From: Albifimbria verrucaria
Taxonomy: Eukaryota > Ascomycota > Sordariomycetes > Hypocreales > Stachybotryaceae
Direction: 5' to 3'
Assembly (NCBI GenBank): GCA_020081605.1
Contig: JAHREC010000011.1
Span: 2,914,001-2,978,000, forward strand
DNA: 64,000 bases
The notes below the pieces were generated by a model that had not been told where the DNA came from, searched no databases, and worked only from the letters and a program-made list of their open reading frames with translations. Of this stretch, positions 8,068 to 26,213 are shown piece after piece. How positions within the stretch are numbered: position 1 is the first letter of the stretch; each line of letters starts with the position of its first letter. The position numbers were made by a program, and so were the translations under genes.

Positions 8068-8640
8068 ATGCTCATGTACAACTTGTTACCAATATTTTTT
8101 CTAAGTGCGTTTGCAACTGCACAAGACAGTTCTACAACTGCACCTGAGATCGTAAGCTCTAAGTAGGCTTTCCTAGACTTGAATACTAACAGCAATTTAG
8201 GCCATAATTTACCGCCAGGAGAATTACTTACAGAAGAGCAAGGGTCAAGAAATTCCCATCAATAATAGATGTGTCAAGATTTCAGGTGAAATGTAGTATA
8301 TCGTGAATCTAGGTTGAGATTGTTGAGCTAATATAGTCGATAGTCCCACTGTTAAATCTATTCGGTTTCCTAAAGGCCCTTACAAGTGCTATTTCTGGTA
8401 AGTTATAGGTTCCTGTTATAGATCCAAGAATGGAGACTTTCTAAATATCGTAGGGAAGGATATTGCGACGACCTCATCGAGTCAGTAACGGGGAGTCAGA
8501 GGACGCTCGACATAGAAGCCGACAGTATTTATTGTTTCAAAATCGAGGAGGAACCCTCCGATGAACCCTCTGATGAACCCTCTGATGAGCCCTCTGGAGA
8601 ACCCTCTGGAGAACCCTCTGAAGAACCCTCTGACCAATAA
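8068..8640 (+). CDS. Small secreted four-cysteine protein, crystallin-like pattern, EPSD repeat tail
   Basis: Four exons, 138 residues: 8068-8151, 8201-8285, 8337-8397, 8454-8640. Introns of 49, 51 and 56 nt have clean signals (GTAAGC/ATACTAACAGC; GTGAAA/GAGCTAAT; GTAAGT/TTCTAAAT). Splicing keeps one frame throughout without any correction. The product starts MLMYNLLPIFFLSAFATA, a signal peptide with cleavage likely after the Ala-rich end; the ATG at 8074 could also serve. The mature part has four cysteines in the order RCVKI, YKCYFW, YCDDL, IYCFKI. This resembles the beta/gamma-crystallin-like pattern of many fungal small secreted proteins (C-x(n)-C-x-F-x-x-x-x-C-x(n)-C). The last 30 residues are acidic tetrapeptide repeats of EPSD/EPSG/EPSE. 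It is likely extracellular, possibly an effector or wall-associated protein. The role is inferred only from architecture. Confidence 0.8.
8552..8635 (+). repeat. 12-bp tandem repeat coding EPSD/EPSG units
   Basis: Seven copies of a GAACCCTCTGAT-like unit, in frame with exon 4 of the secreted protein. Units differ by single bases (GAT, GGA, GAA in the last codon). Copy number of such units often varies between strains. Confidence 0.9.
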
Positions 8641-14286: not shown

Positions 14287-15032
14287 GTTTCCCGTCCAGT
14301 ATTAGTCGTATTGTTGGAGAAGAATCAATATAGGAAGAAATATGTCTAGTTGTTGTACAAATCACGAATGGTTAGGACAGGTCTGTATCAACCCTATCCA
14401 TATAGCTGGCGTGCCCTGGTTACCCCTTTTTGAGAGCCACACGGCGCCTTGAAAAGAATGTAAAGAAAAGAAACCGAAATGGGCCGTTGCATCGGTATGC
14501 TACCTTGCATCCTCTTGGACACTACTAATTGGTTATTGAATGCTGCGCATGAAGCACCTGCATGTGGCTCAGGAGGCCATGCTGACCCGAGGCCGTCACA
14601 GTGTCAAGACTTGATATTTCACGGCTCACGCCAATCTTTTCCTTGGACGGCTGAGTGATACGTGTTGACCAGCCTGTTCAGCTTGCGTCGCCCAATTATC
14701 CCTTCAAATGATAGCTTGGATTGCTGGCCCCCAATACGACGTTAGTGGTCCTCGCTCCCACGGATAATGTTCTGGCCACCCTCCTTGTCTTGTGTCGCAC
14801 ACCGCAAGGGTCATGCGTCTGTGGGCTAGAGCTCATTATGCATGGAAGAGATTGAGAAGCGTGGTACATACAAAGCTCCTTGCTAAGGACATGTGCATCA
14901 AATATGCAAAACTGCTAGTGCCCTCATCGAGGAGGCGTTTATGATCTACAGATTGGTCTAACGGCTATTATCATTACACTGCTTAGATTCCTCACCATTC
15001 ACGACTCAAATCTACAATCCTTGTGTCGTGCC
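14287..15032. promoter_or_regulatory. Divergent intergenic region (permease / 7-TM gene)
   Basis: 746 bp between two divergently transcribed genes. It must hold both promoters. No specific motif is claimed. Confidence 0.45.
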
Positions 15033-16230
15033 ATGTCCCAAGAAGAGGTACCCGGTGTCGACCAAGACAGACCTCGTATTACAGAGGACGACTTGTCACC
15101 ACTAATTCAAATACTTGCCTGGCTGTGCCTCACTTTTGCCATACTCTTCGTTGCTGCTCAGTTTCTCACTAAATGGAGCCTCTCCCGGCGGCTGGGCACG
15201 GGAGATGGTATCCTGTTCCTAGCTTTGGTAGCTTGAATCCCAGGCAAAAGTTGCGATGTCTACTAAATGGACAATTGTAGATACTTGCCTCAGCGCAAAC
15301 TGCGACGCTTGTCAGCGCGCCCGGACGAGCCATCGGGAAATCCCACGAACACCTTTCGGTCGATGCTATAAACAAGGCTTTACAGGCGCGTTTACAATAT
15401 ACATAAATGAAAGAGGGAGAGTGTTGACGCCTGACTAGACCTTATATGCTAGCGAGATTCTAAGTGTCTTCGTGCTGGCAGCAGCAAAAGCATTTCTCCT
15501 TGTATCTTTCATGGACATCACACCAGCTCGGAAGCACCATATCATCATCTACGTCACCGGGGTTGTCGTGGGAGTATGGGCAATAGCGGCAGTGTTTGCT
15601 ACAGCCTTTCAATGTTCCTCGGCCGAGAAATGGAACGTATTGGGAGCTCGTTGCGTCAACATTGTAAAGTGTTTTCTGCATCGATAAATTGCTCGAAGCT
15701 GACTTCTCCACAGACTGCCCTCAGAACTTACACAGCAGTGACCAGCCTTTCAATAGACTTTGTTCTCATTATCATCCCAACAATGATAGTTATACCTCTG
15801 AAGCTACGATGGGGAAAACGCTTCACTGTTTTATCAGCCTTTTGGGCTCGGATAATGTAAGTCCAGTCACTGAGATGTAAGCTTAACTGTTGTTCCGCAC
15901 GAGCTCATTGACACTCTTTGCAGAGTAATAGGTGCCACGATTGGTCAAATTATATCACTCAGACGTCTTGCAATTGACGAGAACTACATTTTCAATATCT
16001 GGAAGCTCATCATCTTCAAAGAAATAGTACAAGCAACAAGCATCATGGCAGCGTGTGTGCCCTTTCTCAGACCATTCCTGATGAGCCTGGAGTCAGGCTT
16101 TCTCAGAGCCGACGATGAAACACGCCGAACTGCCACGGATGCATATGGCTCAGGGATCATAGCGGCAAATCCGGGAGGTCCGCAAGAAGTGGTTCAAATT
16201 ACATCAAAATTTCAGACAATCAATCTTTGA
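15033..16230 (+). CDS. Fungal rhodopsin-like 7-TM integral membrane protein (PTH11-related group)
   Basis: Member of the fungal integral membrane family annotated as fungal rhodopsin domain. Five exons: 15033-15227, 15281-about 15385/15389, 15439-15663, 15714-15856, 15924-16230. Seven hydrophobic helices are visible: PLIQILAWLCLTFAILFVAA; GDGILFLAL joined to ILASAQTATLVSA; ASEILSVFVLAAAKAFLLVS; the segment IIIYVTGVVVGVWAIAAVF; SLSIDFVLIIIPTMIVIPL; the segment with VIGATIGQIISL; and the last with IMAACVPFLRPFL. The second intron lacks a GT donor in the right phase (CAG/GCGCGT), so it is either a GC-AG intron or another consensus error. The C-terminal LRPFLMSLESG block is family-typical. It is probably a sensor or orphan receptor in the plasma membrane; the ligand is unknown. 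Confidence 0.82.
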
Positions 16231-17006
16231 ACCCGCCGATTGAGCTTCAGCAAGGTGTTAATCGAGAGCACCTTCACTAGAATTCGGTTGATAGCAATGT
16301 TTTGGGTTGCGTGGCATAATCAGACGCTGTAATTTGGGAGCCTTGTATGACTGTCAATTTCTAGAGCCTCATGGAGTTCGGCTACTTTATGGTTAGAGAA
16401 AAGACGAAAGGGCGATAAGACGGGCTTGGCGACGGAAAATGGAGAGACACGGCAGTGACGGGATGGTCAGCTCACGCTCACAGTATGCCGCACAAGGCTA
16501 CCCCATCTGCGTCTCGGAAAAACATATCATGCTTGTAACCTGAGAAAAAACTTGCTTGTGACAGACACTTGCCGAGTGATTTGATGAAAGGGTGGGCGAA
16601 TACCACCCATACTCATAAGCTGCCTCGCCAATCATCAGGGCTCGAGCGTGAGGGGAATCCCTCTCCAATTGCATTATTATCACATAGCTCCTTGACACCT
16701 CTACGTAAACGAAAAGAGTGCGAATGGGTGAAAGGGATATGAATCATGCATGGATGTGACCCCTTGTCTTTATTATTCGTGCCCGCACCAAAGTTCATGG
16801 GCCCCTGCTCCACGAAAGTACTTCACATATGGTTACTTGTAAGCTTGAGATATCGAGGTTACATTGCATGGCTCCGCGGCAACTTCCATAGGCAATTCTC
16901 CACTTAACAAAAAGTACCGACTGCTTACATCCGACGTATTCGATCCCAATTCTCAGATGCCAGCAATGGCGCTCCATGAAAATGTGCCGTTGCAGGGATC
17001 AAATGT
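16231..17006. other. Intergenic between convergent genes
   Basis: Holds the 3' ends of the 7-TM gene and of the minus-strand repeat protein gene. No frame with recognisable content. The plus-strand frame through the repeat is the antisense of a real gene. Confidence 0.45.
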
Positions 17007-17359
17007 CTATTCCATGATACCAGCGTCGACCAGAGGCGGCACAGGGCTAGAACGCTCCATAATTCCAGCGTCAACAAGAGGAGGAACCGGGCTGGATCGC
17101 TCCATGATGCCTGCGTCCACCAGAGGGGGACTGGGCTTGACCGTTCCATAATGCCAGCATCAACGAGAGGAGGAACCGGGCTTGAGCGCTCCATGATACC
17201 GGCGTCAACCAAAGGCGGTACTGGGCTCGATCTCTCCGCGACGTCGCCTACCATTCACAATTAGGTATCCGATAGTAAATGCCTTGAAGGGAACTCACCA
17301 ATTGGTGCAGAAGCTGCACCCAGCGCAAAAGCAAACATGGCGATGACTCTGAACTGCAT
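17007..17359 (-). CDS. Secreted five-repeat peptide precursor (candidate RiPP precursor)
   Basis: Two exons on the minus strand, 17359-17299 and 17247-17007, with an intron GTGAGT...CCTAATTG...GGTAG of 51 nt. The product is 100 residues. It starts with a signal peptide (MQFRVIAMFAFALGAASA), then PIGDVA, then five copies of ERSSPVPPLVDAGIM and a final Glu before the stop. All five units are identical in amino acids while most codons differ by synonymous changes (for example Arg is AGA, CGC, CGG, CGA, CGT). This shows that the minus frame is the coding one and is under selection. One C is missing from the C run in the third unit (plus-strand G run 17125-17129). The architecture matches dikaritin RiPP precursors: signal peptide plus identical core repeats. 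Each unit has a single Arg (ER) rather than KR/RR, so the cleavage site is unclear. A structural repeat secretory protein is the alternative. Its start is 873 bp from a divergent UstYa gene. Confidence 0.85.
17013..17236 (-). repeat. 45-bp tandem repeat, five units
   Basis: Five 45-bp units (one now 44 bp) coding the 15-residue repeat of the secreted precursor. DNA identity between units is clearly lower than the 100% protein identity, with differences concentrated at third positions. Confidence 0.92.
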
Positions 17360-18232
17360 GATGGGAGATGCCACGAATTAATGTAAAAGTTTGTGAAGAA
17401 AGATGAGTTCTAACGAAATAAGCAAACCAATATCTTATGGTGGACAATTTGCGATAGACATACTACTTATACCCTTCTCCCAAAAACATGCCACCCTCAA
17501 GAAGTTGATACTCGGACTTCTGGACCGACTGCAACTGCCAATCGTGTCACATGAGCTGGAGTCTCAATGCCACCACATGTTGCACTGATTGCGATGCCGA
17601 GCATAAGGCCTAGACCCAACTACCACTTCGTCATGAAGTGATAATGTGGGTGCGGAGCCTCAACAATCCCTGCCGTGCCATCCCTCCGTCTTCTTGTATG
17701 TGCCAGCTGTTCAATGATTATAGGCTATAATTATGCGGGATAGTGTTCCAAGTACCACTCTTACCCAGACAAGCGGCCGGAAACCCCATGACAATACGTT
17801 GGCCTTGTGTGAATACATGCATCGAGAGGGCGGCACAACAAGTAAGGGAATGAGATTACGCATAAGACCCTGCATGTCATGGTAAGCTGTACCGTCGGAT
17901 TATACTTCTTAATTGGGAATTCAACGGCGTACATCATGTTGCCAAGATATCAACTGGGGATATTTCATCTAATTGGGTATCTTAATGCCTCCGTGTCGCC
18001 TCTCATGAGTTGCCGATTGCAACCTTGCCCAGGCTAAGCACCCATATCCGAAGTACCAAGTCTGGGACTTGGCATTTCCGAGCCTCCATGGATTTGAATT
18101 CCTCCTCGTTTAACCCCTCCTTATGCCAAACCACCAGGCAGGCTACCTCTCTAGTGCTGAGAGCCAGCGATTCCTCTTCATTCTGACTCCTTTTGTTTCC
18201 GGTCAGGCCCAAGGAAAAACTCCAAGCCCTTT
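17360..18232. promoter_or_regulatory. Divergent promoter region of repeat precursor and UstYa gene
   Basis: 873 bp separating the start codons of the two divergently transcribed genes, which suggests co-regulation. No coding frame with recognisable content. No specific binding motif is claimed. Confidence 0.55.
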
Positions 18233-19223
18233 ATGAGTAACAACGAGGAAAAGTGCTCTTCCGACTATGGCGAAAGCCAGGAACCACTATTAGAGGACTC
18301 GATGTTTGAGAGGCAGAGGAAACCCTGGTTTCCCAACTTCTGGGCACGAGCATCCTTCGCAATACTCCTCCTCTATACGGTGGTTTCAGTCCCGATCCTT
18401 GTGATTTCAGGACGAAATCAGATGCCGCGGCCATACTGTAAGTCTGGTAGCAATTTCCCGGTCTCTCGCAGATTTTGACAGACTACAGCCCCGGCAAGCA
18501 ACGTCGTTTCTTACAGGCGCGAGCCTTTATATTTTGGGGAGGATCCAAAGTTTACTGGAGATCCGGATGATGTAGACGAAGCATGGGATAAATTACTCGA
18601 GCGTACGCATCATTCAAGTGTCACTGAACGCTAAAAGCTGTCACTGACAACCAGGACAGCATTGAACATCCGAACTAGCTACGAAGAGCAGGTCAAGGCT
18701 CATTCGAAGATAACACCAGAGATTGTCCAACCAGCAGAAGGAGGATATGTATCAGTTCTGTCTGTTTACCATGAGCTGCATTGTTTGGTAAGCGCCGTGA
18801 TGAATGGGCAGCCGCGTTCATTGTTAGAGCGTACAGAAGTTAACCTGGTTCCTAGGACACGCTTCGAAGAAACTTGTACATCGAGCGATACTATTCAAAT
18901 ATATCTGAGGCTCAGAGAAAGAATAATGCCATTCATATGAGTTTAGTGGACCCATTTCTCCTCGACAATGTTGAATTCAACTAATCTTCATAGCACATTG
19001 TATTGACACGATAAGACGCAGCCTCATGTGCAAGGCGGACACAGCCATTTACACAGCGTACTGGATTGGTAATCATACGGCGATTCCGAGCAAGGAGCTT
19101 CGGTCTGAATCTGACTCAATCTGTGTCAACTGGGAGGCACTAGACACATGGGCCAGGAAGCGCCTCTTGCCCCGAAATGTGTACAAAGTCAAGCCTGGAC
19201 CCTTTGAACAGAAGCACGGTTAG
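18233..19223 (+). CDS. UstYa/DUF3328-family oxidase-like protein
   Basis: Family of membrane-anchored proteins that carry out oxidative cyclisation or modification of peptide cores in fungal RiPP clusters (UstYa/Yb, PhomY) and related steps elsewhere. Five exons fit: 18233-18437, 18482-18602, 18655-18787, 18856-18940, 18994-19223. Features: an N-terminal cytoplasmic tail, one TM helix (FWARASFAILLLYTVVSVPI, residues 36-55), a YSPA(S)NVVSY-like block, FTGDPDDVDEAWDKLL, then VLSVYHELHC (first HxxHC) and, across the fourth intron, HMTHCIDTIRRSLMC (second HxxHC). It ends with ADTAIYTAYWIG...CVNWEALDTWA, as the family does. The fourth intron has an unusual GTTTAG donor. The frame needs one C fewer at 18489-18492 and probably one more G at 18655. 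Both catalytic motifs are intact. The enzyme substrate is inferred only from the adjacent repeat precursor. Confidence 0.88.
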
Positions 19224-19950: not shown

Positions 19951-20928
19951 ATGACGGAAGGCCTGGTTGCATTCAACGTGTCAGGCTTATCCGAGCCATG
20001 CCAAACATGGTACAAGACGTTTGGGGATCTCAAGAGCAATGAGACACCACTGGTCATCCTTCACGGAGGGCCGGGAGCCTGCCATGATTACCTCCTCCCA
20101 CTGACCGACCTTACTGTCCCGCTGATCTTTTACGATCAGATTGGCAATGGCAAGTCGACACATCTACCAGAGAAAATGGGGACGAGGACTTTTGGAGTGT
20201 CGATCTGTTCAAAGATGAGCTCAACAATCTCTTGGGGCACTTGGGCTTGGACGACCGACCCATCGATGTGTATGGTCACTCCTGGGGCGGCATGCTCGCC
20301 GCTGAGTGGGCAGTAACACCTGCAAGCTCCAATCTTAGGAAGCTCATCATATCAAACAGCTTGGCTAGCATGGATGTTTGGCGCATTGGGGTGAACTCCT
20401 CAAGGATAAGCTACCAAAGTGTGCTCAAAAGGCCCTTGACAACGCAGAGGACACTGGGAACTTCACTAGTCCCGAATATCTTGCCGCGATTGACACGTTC
20501 TACCAGAGACATCTCAGTCTCGCACGGCCCTGGCCTGCACCGGAAGTTCAAGCAGCTCTCGATTGGTTCGCCGCAGACCCCACGACTTATGAAACGATGT
20601 AAGTGACAATGCGGTTGCGAGGCAATAGTAGACTAACAGGAGCTCTAGGTACGGTCCCAGTGAGCTCACCATAACAGGCTCGCTCCGCGACTGGACCATC
20701 ATCCCTAAGCTACACAAGATCAAAGTACCAACCCTTTTGATGAATGCAGTGTACGATGAGGCTCAGGATGTGGCAATGCGACCCTTCTTTAAACACATTA
20801 AACAATCCAAGTGGATCACACTGGACAATGCAGCGCACTTTACGCATGTTGACCAGCGTGAGAAGTACATAGAGCATTTGCAGGCTTTTTGGATTGGCCG
20901 TAGAGGGTGCGTGAATGCGTTAGAATAG
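19951..20928 (+). CDS. Proline iminopeptidase (S33 alpha/beta-hydrolase)
   Basis: Removes N-terminal proline from peptides; cytosolic (no signal peptide). Two exons, 19951-20598 and 20649-20928, with a 50-nt intron GTAAGT...CTCTAG. Features: LVILHGGPGACHDY (the HGGPG oxyanion motif of S33 prolyl peptidases), FYDQIGNGKS (the DQxGxGxS block), VYGHSWGGMLA with the nucleophile Ser, TLLMNAVYDEA with the acid Asp, and NAAHFTHVDQREKY with the catalytic His. The frame breaks at the G run 20178-20181 and the T run 20377-20379; one extra base in each restores it, giving about 309 residues, normal for the family. It lies between a UstYa gene and a peptide transporter, so it may trim or recycle proline-rich peptides such as the PVPP-containing repeat next door. 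That link is inference. Confidence 0.9.
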
Positions 20929-21385: not shown

Positions 21386-23397
21386 ATGGATTCTCAAACT
21401 AAAGTTGCGACTACAGAAAGTCCCAACGAAGAGCTTCCAAGAGAAGCAACCGAGGACGAAATAAAGAACTTGGTTCATGAGGTCGACGACATTCCATTCA
21501 CAGCATGGCTTTTGACCTTCACAGGTGCGGCAACTCATCTAGCACGGTTTAGTATCACAGTCACATGGCGTAAGACCAGCTACAGTTGTCACCGGTCTTA
21601 TAATTTGCTGAAAACAAGCAGAAAACTATCTCCAAAATCCTCGCGGCAATCCACTGCTCCCTGGTGCATTGGGGTTGGGACAAGCAACGGCAACAACCAT
21701 CCAGAATGTGTATCTCTTCTTCCAGTATTTAACACCGGTTCCATTCGCAATCATATCAGATGCCTGGATCGGCCGTCATCGAACTATGCATCTTAGTCTT
21801 GTGTAAGGCCTAAGCCCCCACATTGTAAATCCTCACCACTAACAAAACTTTCAAGTCTACTCATTGTTGGATATCTTATTCTAATTGGAACATCTGTTCC
21901 GTCAGCACTAGATAAGGGTGCTGGCTTGCCCGGGCTCATAGTCACCATGGTTCTTGTTGGACTAGGGCATGGTGGACTTAACGCTGTTATGTACCCATTC
22001 ATTGGTGCTTCTTCCCTCCTCGTTGGAGCAGAACTATTCTAACTACTTTACAGGGGACCAGATTCCGGACCTTAAGCCGAGGGTAAAGCGTAACAAAAAG
22101 GGTGAATTGGTTGTTGCCGAGCGCGAACTATCCATCCAGTATGTATTCAATGGTTACTATTGGTAAGTCATTTGCTTTTGAGTTCACCTACTCATAGAAT
22201 TCAGCCAAACTGAACAAATCTTTTAGGATGGTGAACATTGGTTCTCTCGCATTGATCCCGACTACCTTGATAGAGAGGCATGTAGACTTCTGGGCAGCCT
22301 TTTTGCTACCATTCGGCATCATGGTTGCTGCCATTGTACCTGTCATCGTCTGGCACAAACGACTTAGTGAGTGGGTTTCACGGTGCGTGTGAGTTCTCGA
22401 GATGTCTGATGATTTCTTAGCAAAATTAGCACCCGAAGGCAACGTGCTTCCACAAGCGTGTCAAGTGATCTTGCTAGCATGCCGCTCCGGCTTTCGATTG
22501 TCTGTTGCTGAGCCCGACCGCCAGAAACTGCTTCACAATCGTGACGTGTCATGGACAACTGCATTTGTCGACGAGATAAGACGTGGCTTACATGCTTGTC
22601 GTGTTATCATGTGCTTCGTGATATTCTGGTTGTGTTACGATCAAACATCGAACAACATCATCTCTCAGGCAGGTCAGATGCAAACTCATGGGATATCCAA
22701 CGATACAATCCAAGTCCTAAACCCAATCGCTTGCGTTATTCTTGGGCCACTCATTCAGGACGTCCTCTTTCCATTCCTACGCCGAAGAAAAATTCCAGCG
22801 GGGCCTATTCTGCGAATGACCGCGGGATTCTTCTTTACTGCCGCTGGTATAGCTTACGCTGCTGGTGTCCAGAAATGGATCTATTCTAGTGGGCCATGTT
22901 TCCAATATCCCTTGGAGTGTCCTGAATCTATCCAAGAAGATTCAAGCAATTTCGGGCAGAGGAGTCCAAACACCCTTAGTGTTTGGCACCAGACGCCGTT
23001 ACTCTTCTTATTGGCCATTGGCGAGATTTTAGGATTGGTCGCACTGAATGAGTATATATATGCGGAAGCCCCAACCAATCTTAAGGCAATGGTTCAAGCT
23101 CTACAATTCTTATCATCTGCGGTGGGTGCAGCCTTAGGGGCAGCTTTGGGGTCGGTGGCGAGGAATCCATGGTTGGTCATTCTGTTTTCTTGCTTGGCTG
23201 GAACCATGGGTCTGTCTACAGCCCTCTTCTGGGCCGCTTTCAGGAAGCGGGATGCTGTATACGCAAAACATGAGGCAGAGCCAGAGACGGTTGGGGTTGT
23301 AGAAACTGGAAATGAGGTCTCGGAAGTCAAGGCGGATGATGAAGCAAAGACTAGGCCGCTAGAAGGCCTAGAAGTCTCGAACAGCAAGACTATTTGA
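21386..23397 (+). CDS. POT/PTR2-type peptide transporter, atypical proton-coupling motif
   Basis: Member of the proton-dependent oligopeptide transporter family (di/tripeptide uptake or peptide export; plasma membrane or vacuole). Six exons: 21386-21569, 21619-21802, 21856-22004, 22054-22162, 22227-22366, 22421-23397. All introns are about 49-64 nt with GT-AG ends, and the frame is unbroken. Features: VDDIPFTAWLLTFTG before TM1, ENYLQNP, ISDAWIGRHRTM (the loop 2-3 signature), the block ending PFIGDQIPDLKPRVKR, IQYVFNGYYWMVNIGSL (PTR2 signature region), the long central loop, and EILGLVALNEYIYAEAP (the conserved E...EFxY region near TM10). The usual ExxERFxYY of TM1 reads THLARFSIT here, so both glutamates are lost. 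It may be a diverged paralogue with changed coupling or substrate. Its position after a peptide-precursor/UstYa/peptidase group is suggestive. Confidence 0.88.
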
Positions 23398-23808: not shown

Positions 23809-24958
23809 TCACAGCTCCTCGCGTGCCGCTTGTGCTGTTGTTTTGGGTGGTGACTCAGAAGAAGTACGGTTGCCGGTAACCGATGCAGCCCCTTGCAAGA
23901 ATAGCCTATCCACTTCTGCAGCTGCAGTACTATTATCGACTTTTAATCTGAGAAAGAACTGGTTACGTACTGTGTTGTCCCAAATCCAATAGTTTGTACC
24001 ATTGGGCTCAACGTGGTTATACCCGTACTCATTCCCGTACTTGAACAGACCGCCAAGTCCTTGGGCAGCATATAATACTGTCAGGGGTCCCATGAAGCTC
24101 GGGGTTAAGAAAAGTATAATATATATAAGCCATTCGCACGGGGTCATATTTTGGTCCGTCAGCCATGAGCGGCCCTCCAGTGTAGACATACTTGCCAACA
24201 TCTCCACCAACAAACACCATCCGGCCATCCCAACTGTTGACAACGTGTGCGGCTAGACTTGAGTTAGAGCCCCAAAAGTTATAGCTATGTCCTGATGGGT
24301 AACCACCACCCATAATGACTAGCTCGGATACTTTGGCAGCAATCAACTGACGGCCCGTAAGCTTGGAGAAAGAGTCGGCAGTTGAATTCAATAGTCCAGA
24401 CAACTACAGATGCATTAGTCAAATCTGTTCACAATTCAGGCATTCTGACTTGCATTATCCAGAAACCCAATGGAGGCAATGGTAACGCTCCCGTCGTCAG
24501 CCTCCGAAAGCACCTTTCGGTACAGATCGACCGGATCCCACGCTTTCTTCGCATGGCCCCAAGGCAGAGTTCCCCAGACCAGTGGAAAGCAACTTTGCTT
24601 GTATACTCCCCAAGCTCGTAGCCCCAAGAATCGAAAAATGTCGCATTTGTCAAGGGGCGACAGATTCCAACTGGGACTTCAGACAACCCGTAATGGGCCA
24701 GAATGGCAGAAGCCGCGAGTGCAGAAAAAGTCGATGGGTAGTTGATGTTGGCACCGACTAATTTGACCTCTGGTAGAGTTGCTGCTAAAAGAAGAGCACC
24801 AGCATCACTGCTACGTGTCAGCCGTCGAGAAAGAAACGCGGTCGGCAGCCTTACTCTACGTCACTAAATAAGTCGGTGTCGATAATCAGATTCTTGCCGG
24901 TAACGCAGCTTATAAAGACGGTTAGGGAAAGGGATATGACATCAGAAAGGTTACGCAT
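23809..24958 (-). CDS. Secreted inosine-uridine-type nucleoside hydrolase
   Basis: Hydrolyses the N-glycosidic bond of ribonucleosides. Exons on the minus strand: 24958-24855, 24807-24454, 24403-23809. The product starts with a signal peptide (MRNLSDVISLSLTVFISC). The Ca-binding N-terminal motif follows (IIDTDLFSDVDDAGAL, the DxDxxxDD of the family), completed across intron 1. Further blocks are SIGFLDNLSGLL (spanning intron 2) and ELVIMGGGYPSGHSYNFW. The second intron has a GC donor (AAT/GCAAGT) with a TGACTAAT branch and TGTAG end. The frame changes once more near 24105 at a T run. The C-terminal tail is Ser/Thr/Ala-rich. Extracellular location suggests purine/pyrimidine salvage or modification of host/plant nucleosides; the substrate is not determinable. 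Confidence 0.88.
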
Positions 24959-26213
24959 GATGCTTTCATTTATGTCTTGCCACAAGAAGTTGTAGCGATG
25001 AGAAATGCCGGACAGCCATCTATCCAATATCTTTGCGAAGGGTGGGTTAAAAGCATAAACGAGGGCGCAGTGTTCTCCTAGGCAATTAAGCTGACATAAT
25101 CCTTGCAAAGTTGTTGTCACTGGCCAGAACAATAAATCCTTGATAATGTGTACAGTAGTGAACAGGGCTATTAGCACTTATTATCGATGGCAGATTACAA
25201 GGTCGGCTGACTTGACATTTTTTGCGATGGTACGCAATTTTAACGCTCATTCATATTCCTCATCTATCCACTCGCGTCATTCGAGTCCTCGTTGTTGTGT
25301 CGGGCATGGAAAGGCAAGAGAGAATACGGCGTTTTATTCTAGCTACCCTAGAATTGGTCGTTTACCTTCATCACTTCAAGGTAGGTGAAGGCTGCGGGTC
25401 ATCTAGCCTTATAGGAAGGGCCTAGTAAACATCTTTTATCTTTCTTTATGAATACAATACGTTCCTCCTACCTTACGCTTCCTCGGAGCATCCATTGATC
25501 AAACGATATATGATACCCAATCTCATTTGTTATTTCCCCAACGTTGTCATTATGACCCTCAAAGTAACCGGACTTACGGTCTGGCATGTGGTGTTGCTTT
25601 GCTCCCAACAAATCATCTATTGTTCCATTGCTGTGATTGTATCTATTACACTTACCTACTCCATATATCAGTGAGCCCTGCCCAGTAGGATTCGCCCAGT
25701 GGCTGTACTCCTTGAACTTCACGCGCCTTCGTCTTCAACTTGTTCATTTGGTTATAGCATAACAATCCGGATTCTACCTGACATGGCCTTCGTTTGATTG
25801 GTCGTGCCGTTTGTCTATTATCCAGAGAGCAATAAGATCCAACCACAAGACGCTTCATTGAAGTCATTCATGTAACGTCTTGTTCAAGGCGTCAGGAATC
25901 AGTTTACGAGGAAACCACTGTACGAAAGCCGATGCTATCGCTAGATAATACACAGACACTCATAAGGGGTTGCAACTCGCTCTCGTCCTAGCCACGTTGA
26001 CCTGAGGTGTAAGTAGGGCCAAGGTAAGGCAGGTTGTGTGATATAGTATTATGGTATGGATGTATGCCTTATTTGTAGGGTTTATCCGAGATGGAGTCTT
26101 TGAACCATGGCCTGTATTGTGCCAGGTAGCAGGTAGCAGGTCTCTGTCAAAGCCTCCACTTTATAGATAGTATTAACCAGCCTCGAAACCATCAAACAAG
26201 CTAAAGAAGCTTA
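24959..26213. other. Intergenic, no gene seen
   Basis: No recognisable frame. A short direct repeat (GGTAGCA, about 26125-26140) is present. The end of the region holds the 5' flank of the tRNA. Confidence 0.45.

What the first reader, a model, noticed from the sequence alone, without database searches (positions are those of the whole stretch)
17007..17359. Candidate RiPP precursor: signal peptide plus five identical 15-residue repeats
Seen: a two-exon minus-strand gene encodes MQFRVIAMFAFALGAASA followed by five copies of ERSSPVPPLVDAGIM and a stop. Known: fungal dikaritin precursors (UstA, PhomA, VicA types) are short secreted proteins with tandem identical cores. Inference: this is a precursor of a proline-rich modified or free peptide with an SSPVPPLVDAGI-type core, not matching any core I know.
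Basis: partly seen in the sequence, partly recalled or inferred. Interest (0 to 1): 0.95.

Follow-up and report, generated by a model that had tools for sequence, protein, structure and literature searches.

The report
UstYa-linked fungal repeat peptide precursor
A fungal gene encodes a secreted protein made of five near-copies of one 15-residue peptide and sits head-to-head with a gene for a peptide-modifying enzyme of a copper-oxidase family, so it most likely makes an unknown modified peptide, unusual in lacking both the usual cutting sites and the usual aromatic residues.

Summary
A signal-peptide exon, a 51-nt intron and five copies of a 15-codon unit (ERSSPVPPLVDAGIM) lie on the minus strand at 17359-17007. 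Correction: copy 3 is 44 nt, so the copies are not in one frame in this assembly. The four full copies differ at 13 nucleotide columns, all synonymous, so the array was shaped as coding sequence. G/C runs of six or more are absent from a 200-kb sample of the assembly (about 35 expected), so the shift is probably a sequencing artefact, not proven.

An intact five-exon UstYa (DUF3328) gene with both HxxHC motifs starts 873 bp away, divergently. Of eight other UstYa loci examined, four carry repeat precursors of the same build (signal exon, short phase-1 intron, repeats).

Best reading: a dikaritin-like RiPP precursor. It differs from the textbook type in having no Kex2 dibasic site and no aromatic residue in the unit; surveys that require dibasic sites would miss it. 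A second dibasic-free precursor (with Tyr) lies at another UstYa locus. Processing and chemistry are inferred. No homologue of the precursor was found, so conservation of the pair in relatives is untested.

The parts
17299..17359 (-). Precursor exon 1: signal peptide MQFRVIAMFAFALGAASAPI plus one base (phase 1)
   Evidence: same build in four sibling precursors; signal peptide judged by eye
17248..17298 (-). 51-nt intron, GTGAGT ... TGGTAG, with a CTAAT branch-like box and in-frame stops
17013..17236 (-). Five copies of the ERSSPVPPLVDAGIM unit: 17236-17192, 17191-17147, 17146-17103 (44 nt, frame shifts here), 17102-17058, 17057-17013
17007..17012 (-). GAA TAG: end of the frame of copies 4 and 5; the frame of copies 1 and 2 ends at 16925
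17467..17471 (-). TATAA sequence 112 nt upstream of the ATG
   Evidence: consensus match only
17360..18232 (.). 873-bp divergent spacer between the precursor and UstYa start codons
18233..19223 (+). UstYa (PF11807/DUF3328), 253 aa, exons 18233-18437, 18489-18602, 18660-18787, 18856-18940, 18994-19223; transmembrane-like stretch (by eye), HELHC at 144 and HMTHC at 176
19951..20928 (+). Proline iminopeptidase-family alpha/beta hydrolase, no signal peptide by eye, split over three frames; membership in the cluster uncertain
21386..23397 (+). POT/PTR2 oligopeptide:H+ symporter (approximate limits; Pfam match 22228-23157); membership in the cluster uncertain

Best explanation
The locus is a small fungal RiPP cluster of the UstYa (dikaritin-like) kind. 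The precursor enters the secretory pathway by its signal peptide (inferred from sequence). The divergent UstYa enzyme, an HxxHC...HxxHC protein whose characterised relative CctR uses two copper ions and O2 to oxidise a C(sp3)-H bond, modifies the repeated unit (inferred from linkage). As the unit has no aromatic residue, the likely change is on aliphatic residues (desaturation, hydroxylation or chlorination of Pro, Val, Leu, Ile or Asp), not a tyrosine ether ring (inferred). The units are released by something other than dibasic Kex2 cleavage, most simply at the single Arg of each copy, giving 15-residue pieces such as SSPVPPLVDAGIMER (inferred). The break in copy 3 is most likely an assembly error at a homopolymer (supported, not shown).
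For: Synonymous-only divergence of the copies. UstYa divergent neighbour with complete motifs, whose spliced product matches its best relative P0001 without gaps across the four splice junctions other than an alignment-wide gap column block set by another row, at 63% identity. PF11807 matches fall at about 28 places in 48.4 Mb, so a chance UstYa within 1 kb has odds of roughly 0.1% (own arithmetic, whose counts are lower bounds). Repeat ORFs at 5 of 8 other UstYa loci examined against 2 of 18 control stretches at the looser threshold, 4 of 8 against 1 of 18 at the stricter; one of the eight (L034) was fetched because its edge had already shown a repeat, so 4 of 7 without it. The window precursor and four siblings (L028, L032, L034, L036) all have a signal exon ended by a phase-1 intron of 44-64 nt, followed by repeats. 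G/C runs of six or more absent from the sample; the neighbouring peptidase is also frame-split. PMC7329392 (section 7) reports that DUF3328 genes peak at the position next to repeat-precursor genes. PMC12435403 (parts 1-2 of 3 read) shows CctR is copper-dependent.
Against: As assembled the array is not one open frame. No homologue of the precursor among the candidates scored from 5.8 billion proteins and no paralogue in the genome (the only extra hit, L011, reads antisense to what looks like another repeat gene). No dibasic site and no aromatic residue, unlike the four sibling arrays with KR sites. Only one UstYa, and no tyrosinase, methyltransferase or P450 found by Pfam in 0.1-35 kb. [quoted passage not shown] 3 of the 8 other UstYa loci (L030, L035, L037) showed no repeat ORF. 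No transcript or mass data.
Confidence: 0.6

Rival explanations
1. A precursor of linear, unmodified secreted peptides (signal or pheromone-like), or a repetitive secreted or wall protein, next to a UstYa gene that serves something else.
For: No aromatic residue for a classical UstYa ring; single UstYa and no further tailoring gene found; 6120 of 7878 Kex2-type repeat proteins have no DUF3328 neighbour (PMC7329392, section 7).
Against: The UstYa gene is the immediate divergent neighbour and is intact; sibling precursors at other UstYa loci share the gene build; almost all mating-factor precursors lack DUF3328 neighbours (PMC7329392, abstract); the unit has no Trp or Cys, which ascomycete alpha-pheromones carry (PMC6339444, passages).
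Confidence: 0.17
2. A decaying pseudogene: the shift in copy 3 is real and the array no longer makes full-length precursor.
For: The assembled sequence reads this way; the peptidase gene beside it is also frame-split.
Against: Both sides of the shift keep the same unit, with synonymous changes only in the four full copies; G/C runs of six or more are missing from the sampled assembly, 0 against 34.8 expected in 20 stretches of 10 kb; the UstYa gene is intact.
Confidence: 0.15
3. Textbook dikaritin: Kex2-processed precursor and tyrosine-type ether cyclisation.
For: Signal peptide, tandem cores, adjacent UstYa.
Against: No KR/RR/KK/RK in the precursor up to the shift and no Tyr, Phe or Trp in the unit; no tyrosinase found in 0.1-35 kb.
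Confidence: 0.05

Closest known systems
Dikaritins (ustiloxin, phomopsin, asperipin-2a precursors with UstYa)
   Same: Signal peptide, tandem near-identical units, UstYa (DUF3328) gene next door; a five-fold repeat is the average reported in PMC10512285 (passages)
   Different: No dibasic Kex2 sites, no aromatic residue in the unit; no tyrosinase found (ustiloxin and phomopsin need one, PMC7329392 section 7). A single UstYa is also the case in asperipin-2a (same section)
Kex2-processed repeat proteins (KEPs)
   Same: Secreted tandem-repeat protein with repeats of at least 8 residues
   Different: The KEP survey requires KR/KK/RK/RR between repeats (PMC7329392, section 13); none here
Victorin and epichloecyclin (GigA) precursors
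   Same: Multicore secreted precursors; victorin is chlorinated (PMC9233826, passages)
   Different: Phe- or Tyr-based rings and likely Kex2 processing in those (PMC9233826, passages)
CctR of cyclochlorotine (DUF3328 acting on an aliphatic carbon)
   Same: Same enzyme family; the HxxHC...HxxHC copper motif is present in the window's UstYa
   Different: Substrate there is a non-ribosomal peptide; closeness of the window's enzyme to CctR was not tested

Membership tests
Dikaritin (UstYa-type fungal RiPP) | UstYa/DUF3328 gene linked to the precursor | tested here: met
   Divergent UstYa at 18233-19223, intact motifs
Dikaritin (UstYa-type fungal RiPP) | Secreted precursor with tandem repeated cores | tested here: met
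   Signal-like exon and five copies; signal judged by eye, no SignalP; frame interrupted in copy 3
Dikaritin (UstYa-type fungal RiPP) | Dibasic Kex2 sites between cores | tested here: not met
   No [KR][KR] in the precursor reading up to the shift, nor in copies 4 and 5 (same unit); seen by eye in siblings L028, L032, L033, L034
Dikaritin (UstYa-type fungal RiPP) | Aromatic residue cross-linked in the core | tested here: not met
   No F, W or Y in the unit
Dikaritin (UstYa-type fungal RiPP) | Cyclised or otherwise modified product | not testable with these tools
   Needs mass spectrometry
Kex2-processed repeat protein (KEP) | At least 3 repeats of at least 8 aa between KR/KK/RK/RR | tested here: not met
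   criterion from PMC7329392 section 13
UstYa/DUF3328 enzyme family (for the neighbour) | PF11807 match above cut-off and HxxHC(x)nHxxHC | tested here: met
   Two stretches above cut-off; HELHC 144, HMTHC 176
Ascomycete alpha-pheromone precursor | Kex2 sites and a conserved Trp/Cys-bearing core | tested here: not met
   No dibasic site and no Trp; no Cys in the unit by reading

The most novel reading that the evidence does not exclude
There is a branch of UstYa-linked fungal RiPPs whose precursors carry no dibasic sites and are released by another protease (for example at single Arg), and whose UstYa enzyme works on a wholly aliphatic, proline-rich unit by copper-dependent desaturation, hydroxylation or halogenation instead of aromatic ring closure. 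The window locus and, for the missing dibasic sites, locus L036 would be two examples in one genome; repeat surveys keyed to Kex2 sites cannot see them.
Probability: 0.33. Interest if true: 0.75.

Novelty: new variant of a known kind. Interest (0 to 1): 0.55.

Why it matters
The two large surveys of fungal repeat precursors looked for repeats flanked by dibasic sites (PMC7329392, PMC6339444), and the best-known cores carry tyrosine. A UstYa-linked repeat precursor with neither suggests that part of this peptide class is hidden, and gives a short defined substrate (15 residues, no aromatics) on which copper-dependent UstYa chemistry on aliphatic carbons could be tested directly.

Tried and rejected
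Rejected: the plus-strand reading of the array (5 to 12 of 15 residues differ among copies in its three frames). Rejected: L011 as a paralogous precursor (antisense reading of what looks like another repeat gene). Homologue searches of the precursor found nothing: 29 candidates, none at E <= 10, 7997 candidates (those sharing most words) scored, none at E <= 10. The first could see only proteins of about 80-254 residues and the second about 165-525, so shorter relatives, and genes never annotated, would be missed. No solved structure matches the UstYa profile at E <= 0.01. Literature: no paper of the open library holds the three core strings. Dibasic-free UstYa-linked precursors were looked for in the listings, and on neighbouring themes; I saw no clear report in what I read, but PMC6339444 (section 10) says 'almost all', so not all, Aspergillus ust-RiPS precursors have Kex2 sites, so the lack may not be new. 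A peptidase as recurrent partner was tested at one other locus, L036: Pfam found only UstYa and HET there, so the proline iminopeptidase has no support as a recurrent partner. Structure prediction was not run. Repeat scans (threshold 18; threshold 12) were redone at both thresholds; two of the 20 stretches first fetched as controls (L028, L030) overlap UstYa hits and were moved to the UstYa group before counting. In one search the first acceptor tried for L036, and two of three tried for L028, gave out-of-frame readings; the acceptor reaching the repeat frame was kept. L033 exon 1 was not resolved.

Full report
WHAT IS THERE. The window lies in contig 8 (2914001-2978000) of a 48.4-Mb, 41-contig genome that is fungal by its introns and its protein relatives; the nearest UstYa relatives with full coverage are from Clonostachys and Stachybotrys (63%), so a Sordariomycete, perhaps Hypocreales, is likely but was not tested. 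On the minus strand an ATG at 17359 opens a 61-nt exon (MQFRVIAMFAFALGAASAPI plus one base), then a 51-nt intron (GTGAGT...TGGTAG), then an exon that reads GDVA and enters tandem copies of ERSSPVPPLVDAGIM. Tandem Repeats Finder sees the array at 17011-17227.

THE CORRECTION. Four copies are 45 nt and copy 3 is 44 nt. Copies 1 and 2 and the start of 3 are in the frame of exon 1; the rest of 3 and copies 4 and 5 are in another frame that ends at 17007, while the first frame runs on to 16925. So 'five identical copies and a stop' is not one reading of this assembly. Three facts make an assembly error more likely than decay. First, the unit is kept on both sides of the shift. Second, G/C runs of six or more are absent: 0 against 12.7 expected in the window and 0 against 34.8 expected in 20 other 10-kb stretches; A/T runs of six or more number 18 against 28.2 and 48 against 82.1, so they too are short of expectation, but far less so (expectation is a geometric extrapolation from shorter runs). 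Third, the peptidase gene at 19951-20928 matches one family profile in three frames, the first two changes with no gap for an intron, at G runs as far as I can tell by eye. None of this proves the reading.

CODING OR CHANCE. Among the four 45-nt copies 13 columns vary, 11 at third positions and 2 at first positions, and all four translate identically. In the other frames 5 to 13 of 15 residues differ. Placing each copy's 5-7 changes at random leaves the peptide unchanged with probability 5.5e-5 to 8.6e-4 per copy. The array was shaped by selection on this peptide, or by exchange between copies within that constraint.

THE NEIGHBOUR. A six-frame search of the genome with PF11807 gave 35 matches at about 28 places, two of the matches being exons of one gene in the window (the same exons). 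Its five exons (18233-18437, 18489-18602, 18660-18787, 18856-18940, 18994-19223) join to 253 residues, with HELHC at 144 and HMTHC at 176. 23 proteins matched at E <= 0.001; 19 of the 23 were aligned with it, at 41-63% identity (60% for the fragment P0021). Each of the six motif columns is kept in 17 or 18 of the 20 rows; the exceptions are gaps or divergent stretches in P0014, P0017, P0018 and P0021. The two start codons are 873 bp apart, divergent. Umemura 2020 (PMC7329392; abstract, sections 7 and 13 read) found DUF3328 genes most often at the position next to repeat-precursor genes. Huang et al. 2025 (PMC12435403; parts 1 and 2 of 3 read) show that the DUF3328 enzyme CctR is a copper-dependent hydroxylase, and propose that its catalytic domain lies in an organelle lumen.

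SIBLINGS IN THE SAME GENOME. L030 and L034 cover mainly one flank. L034 was fetched because the edge of L003 had already shown a repeat, and L028 and L030 had come in as control stretches. Repeat ORFs were found in 5 of 8 at the looser threshold and 4 of 8 at the stricter (4 of 7 and 3 of 7 without L034), against 2 of 18 and 1 of 18 control stretches; L030, L035 and L037 showed none. Four arrays have dibasic sites and aromatic residues: AKRAEEELDADASETYLGYVNNTDAEV (L032), GKRENSVDSTNNQAGW (L033), DAAWVFTGGNVKREETDA (L034) and VADGFKKRDDEDVV (L028). L036 has two copies of about 20 residues (VVPNVIAYENPKNVVSSGQS) with Tyr and no dibasic site. In the window precursor, L028, L032, L034 and L036 the signal exon ends in phase 1 and the intron is 44-64 nt long (5 of 5; the acceptors in L036 and L028 were chosen to reach the repeat frame). 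Exon 1 of L034 ends API + 1 nt, just as in the window. L033 was not resolved. The UstYa genes of these loci are 22-40% identical to the window's in the aligned stretches, so these are not recent copies.

WHAT IS MISSING. Six-frame Pfam scans of 0.1-35 kb (E <= 0.001) found, besides UstYa, two alpha/beta hydrolases, a POT transporter, an amino-acid permease, a fungal rhodopsin-domain protein, a dual-specificity phosphatase, two HET domains, a sugar transporter, a GNAT acetyltransferase, a GH18 gene and a disordered PT repeat. No tyrosinase, P450, methyltransferase or second UstYa was found. From 35 to 64 kb only selected ORFs were scanned, though the genome search shows no further UstYa match in the window. 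The precursor has no relative found in the protein collection or in its own genome.

HOW IT MOST LIKELY WORKS. Shown: a conserved repeated peptide, a signal-like exon, an intact UstYa gene next door, shared architecture with other UstYa-linked precursors. Inferred: secretion, modification by that UstYa, release of units. With no dibasic site, release at the single Arg of each unit is the simplest guess; a monobasic-specific yapsin is known in yeast (seen only as a reference title in PMC2515848). With no aromatic residue, chemistry on aliphatic carbons is the natural guess: DUF3328 proteins are credited with halogenation, hydroxylation and macrocyclisation of C(sp3)-H bonds (PMC12435403) and with desaturation in phomopsin (PMC10512285, passages). 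In Umemura's survey 65.6% of the repeats beside DUF3328 genes contain Tyr, so about a third do not; lack of Tyr alone is not rare (PMC7329392, section 7). The proline iminopeptidase and peptide transporter downstream may be catabolic bystanders.

VERDICT. A real, probably functional, dikaritin-like precursor gene with an unmatched unit; new variant of a known kind. It works like a dikaritin precursor in outline, but I do not file it as a textbook dikaritin, because the dibasic and aromatic features were tested and not met. The dibasic-free state may not be unprecedented, since Le Marquer et al. (PMC6339444; section 10 and passages read) write that 'almost all' Aspergillus precursors have Kex2 sites.

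Noticed in passing
L036:7049-7346 (+), UstYa matches at about L036:4685-5381 (-): A second UstYa-linked, dibasic-free repeat precursor of 77 residues (two units of VVPNVxAYENPKNVVxSG), open after splicing of a 64-nt intron and also divergent from its UstYa gene.
   Followed up: partly
L028 (minus strand), L032 (plus), L033 (minus), L034 (plus): Four further UstYa-linked repeat precursors with KR-type sites and aromatic cores, none searched for relatives.
   Followed up: partly
window and L012-L031 (264 kb): No G/C homopolymer of six or more; runs of five or more are under half of expectation. Frame breaks in this assembly should be read with care.
   Followed up: yes
window 19951-20928 (+): Proline iminopeptidase-family gene split over three frames, 0.7 kb downstream of the UstYa gene.
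   Followed up: partly
window 14919-16230 (+): Fungal rhodopsin-domain (PF20684, match 15424-15678) gene, apparently spread over several frames, on the other side of the precursor.
   Followed up: no
window 23809-25177 (-): Overlapping ORFs in several frames that look like one gene; they resemble a nucleoside hydrolase by recall only, and the Pfam scan up to 25000 gave no hit there.
   Followed up: no
window 8551-8633 (+): Tandem array of period 12 (GAACCCTCTGAA), matching the PF04886 'PT' disordered repeat.
   Followed up: no
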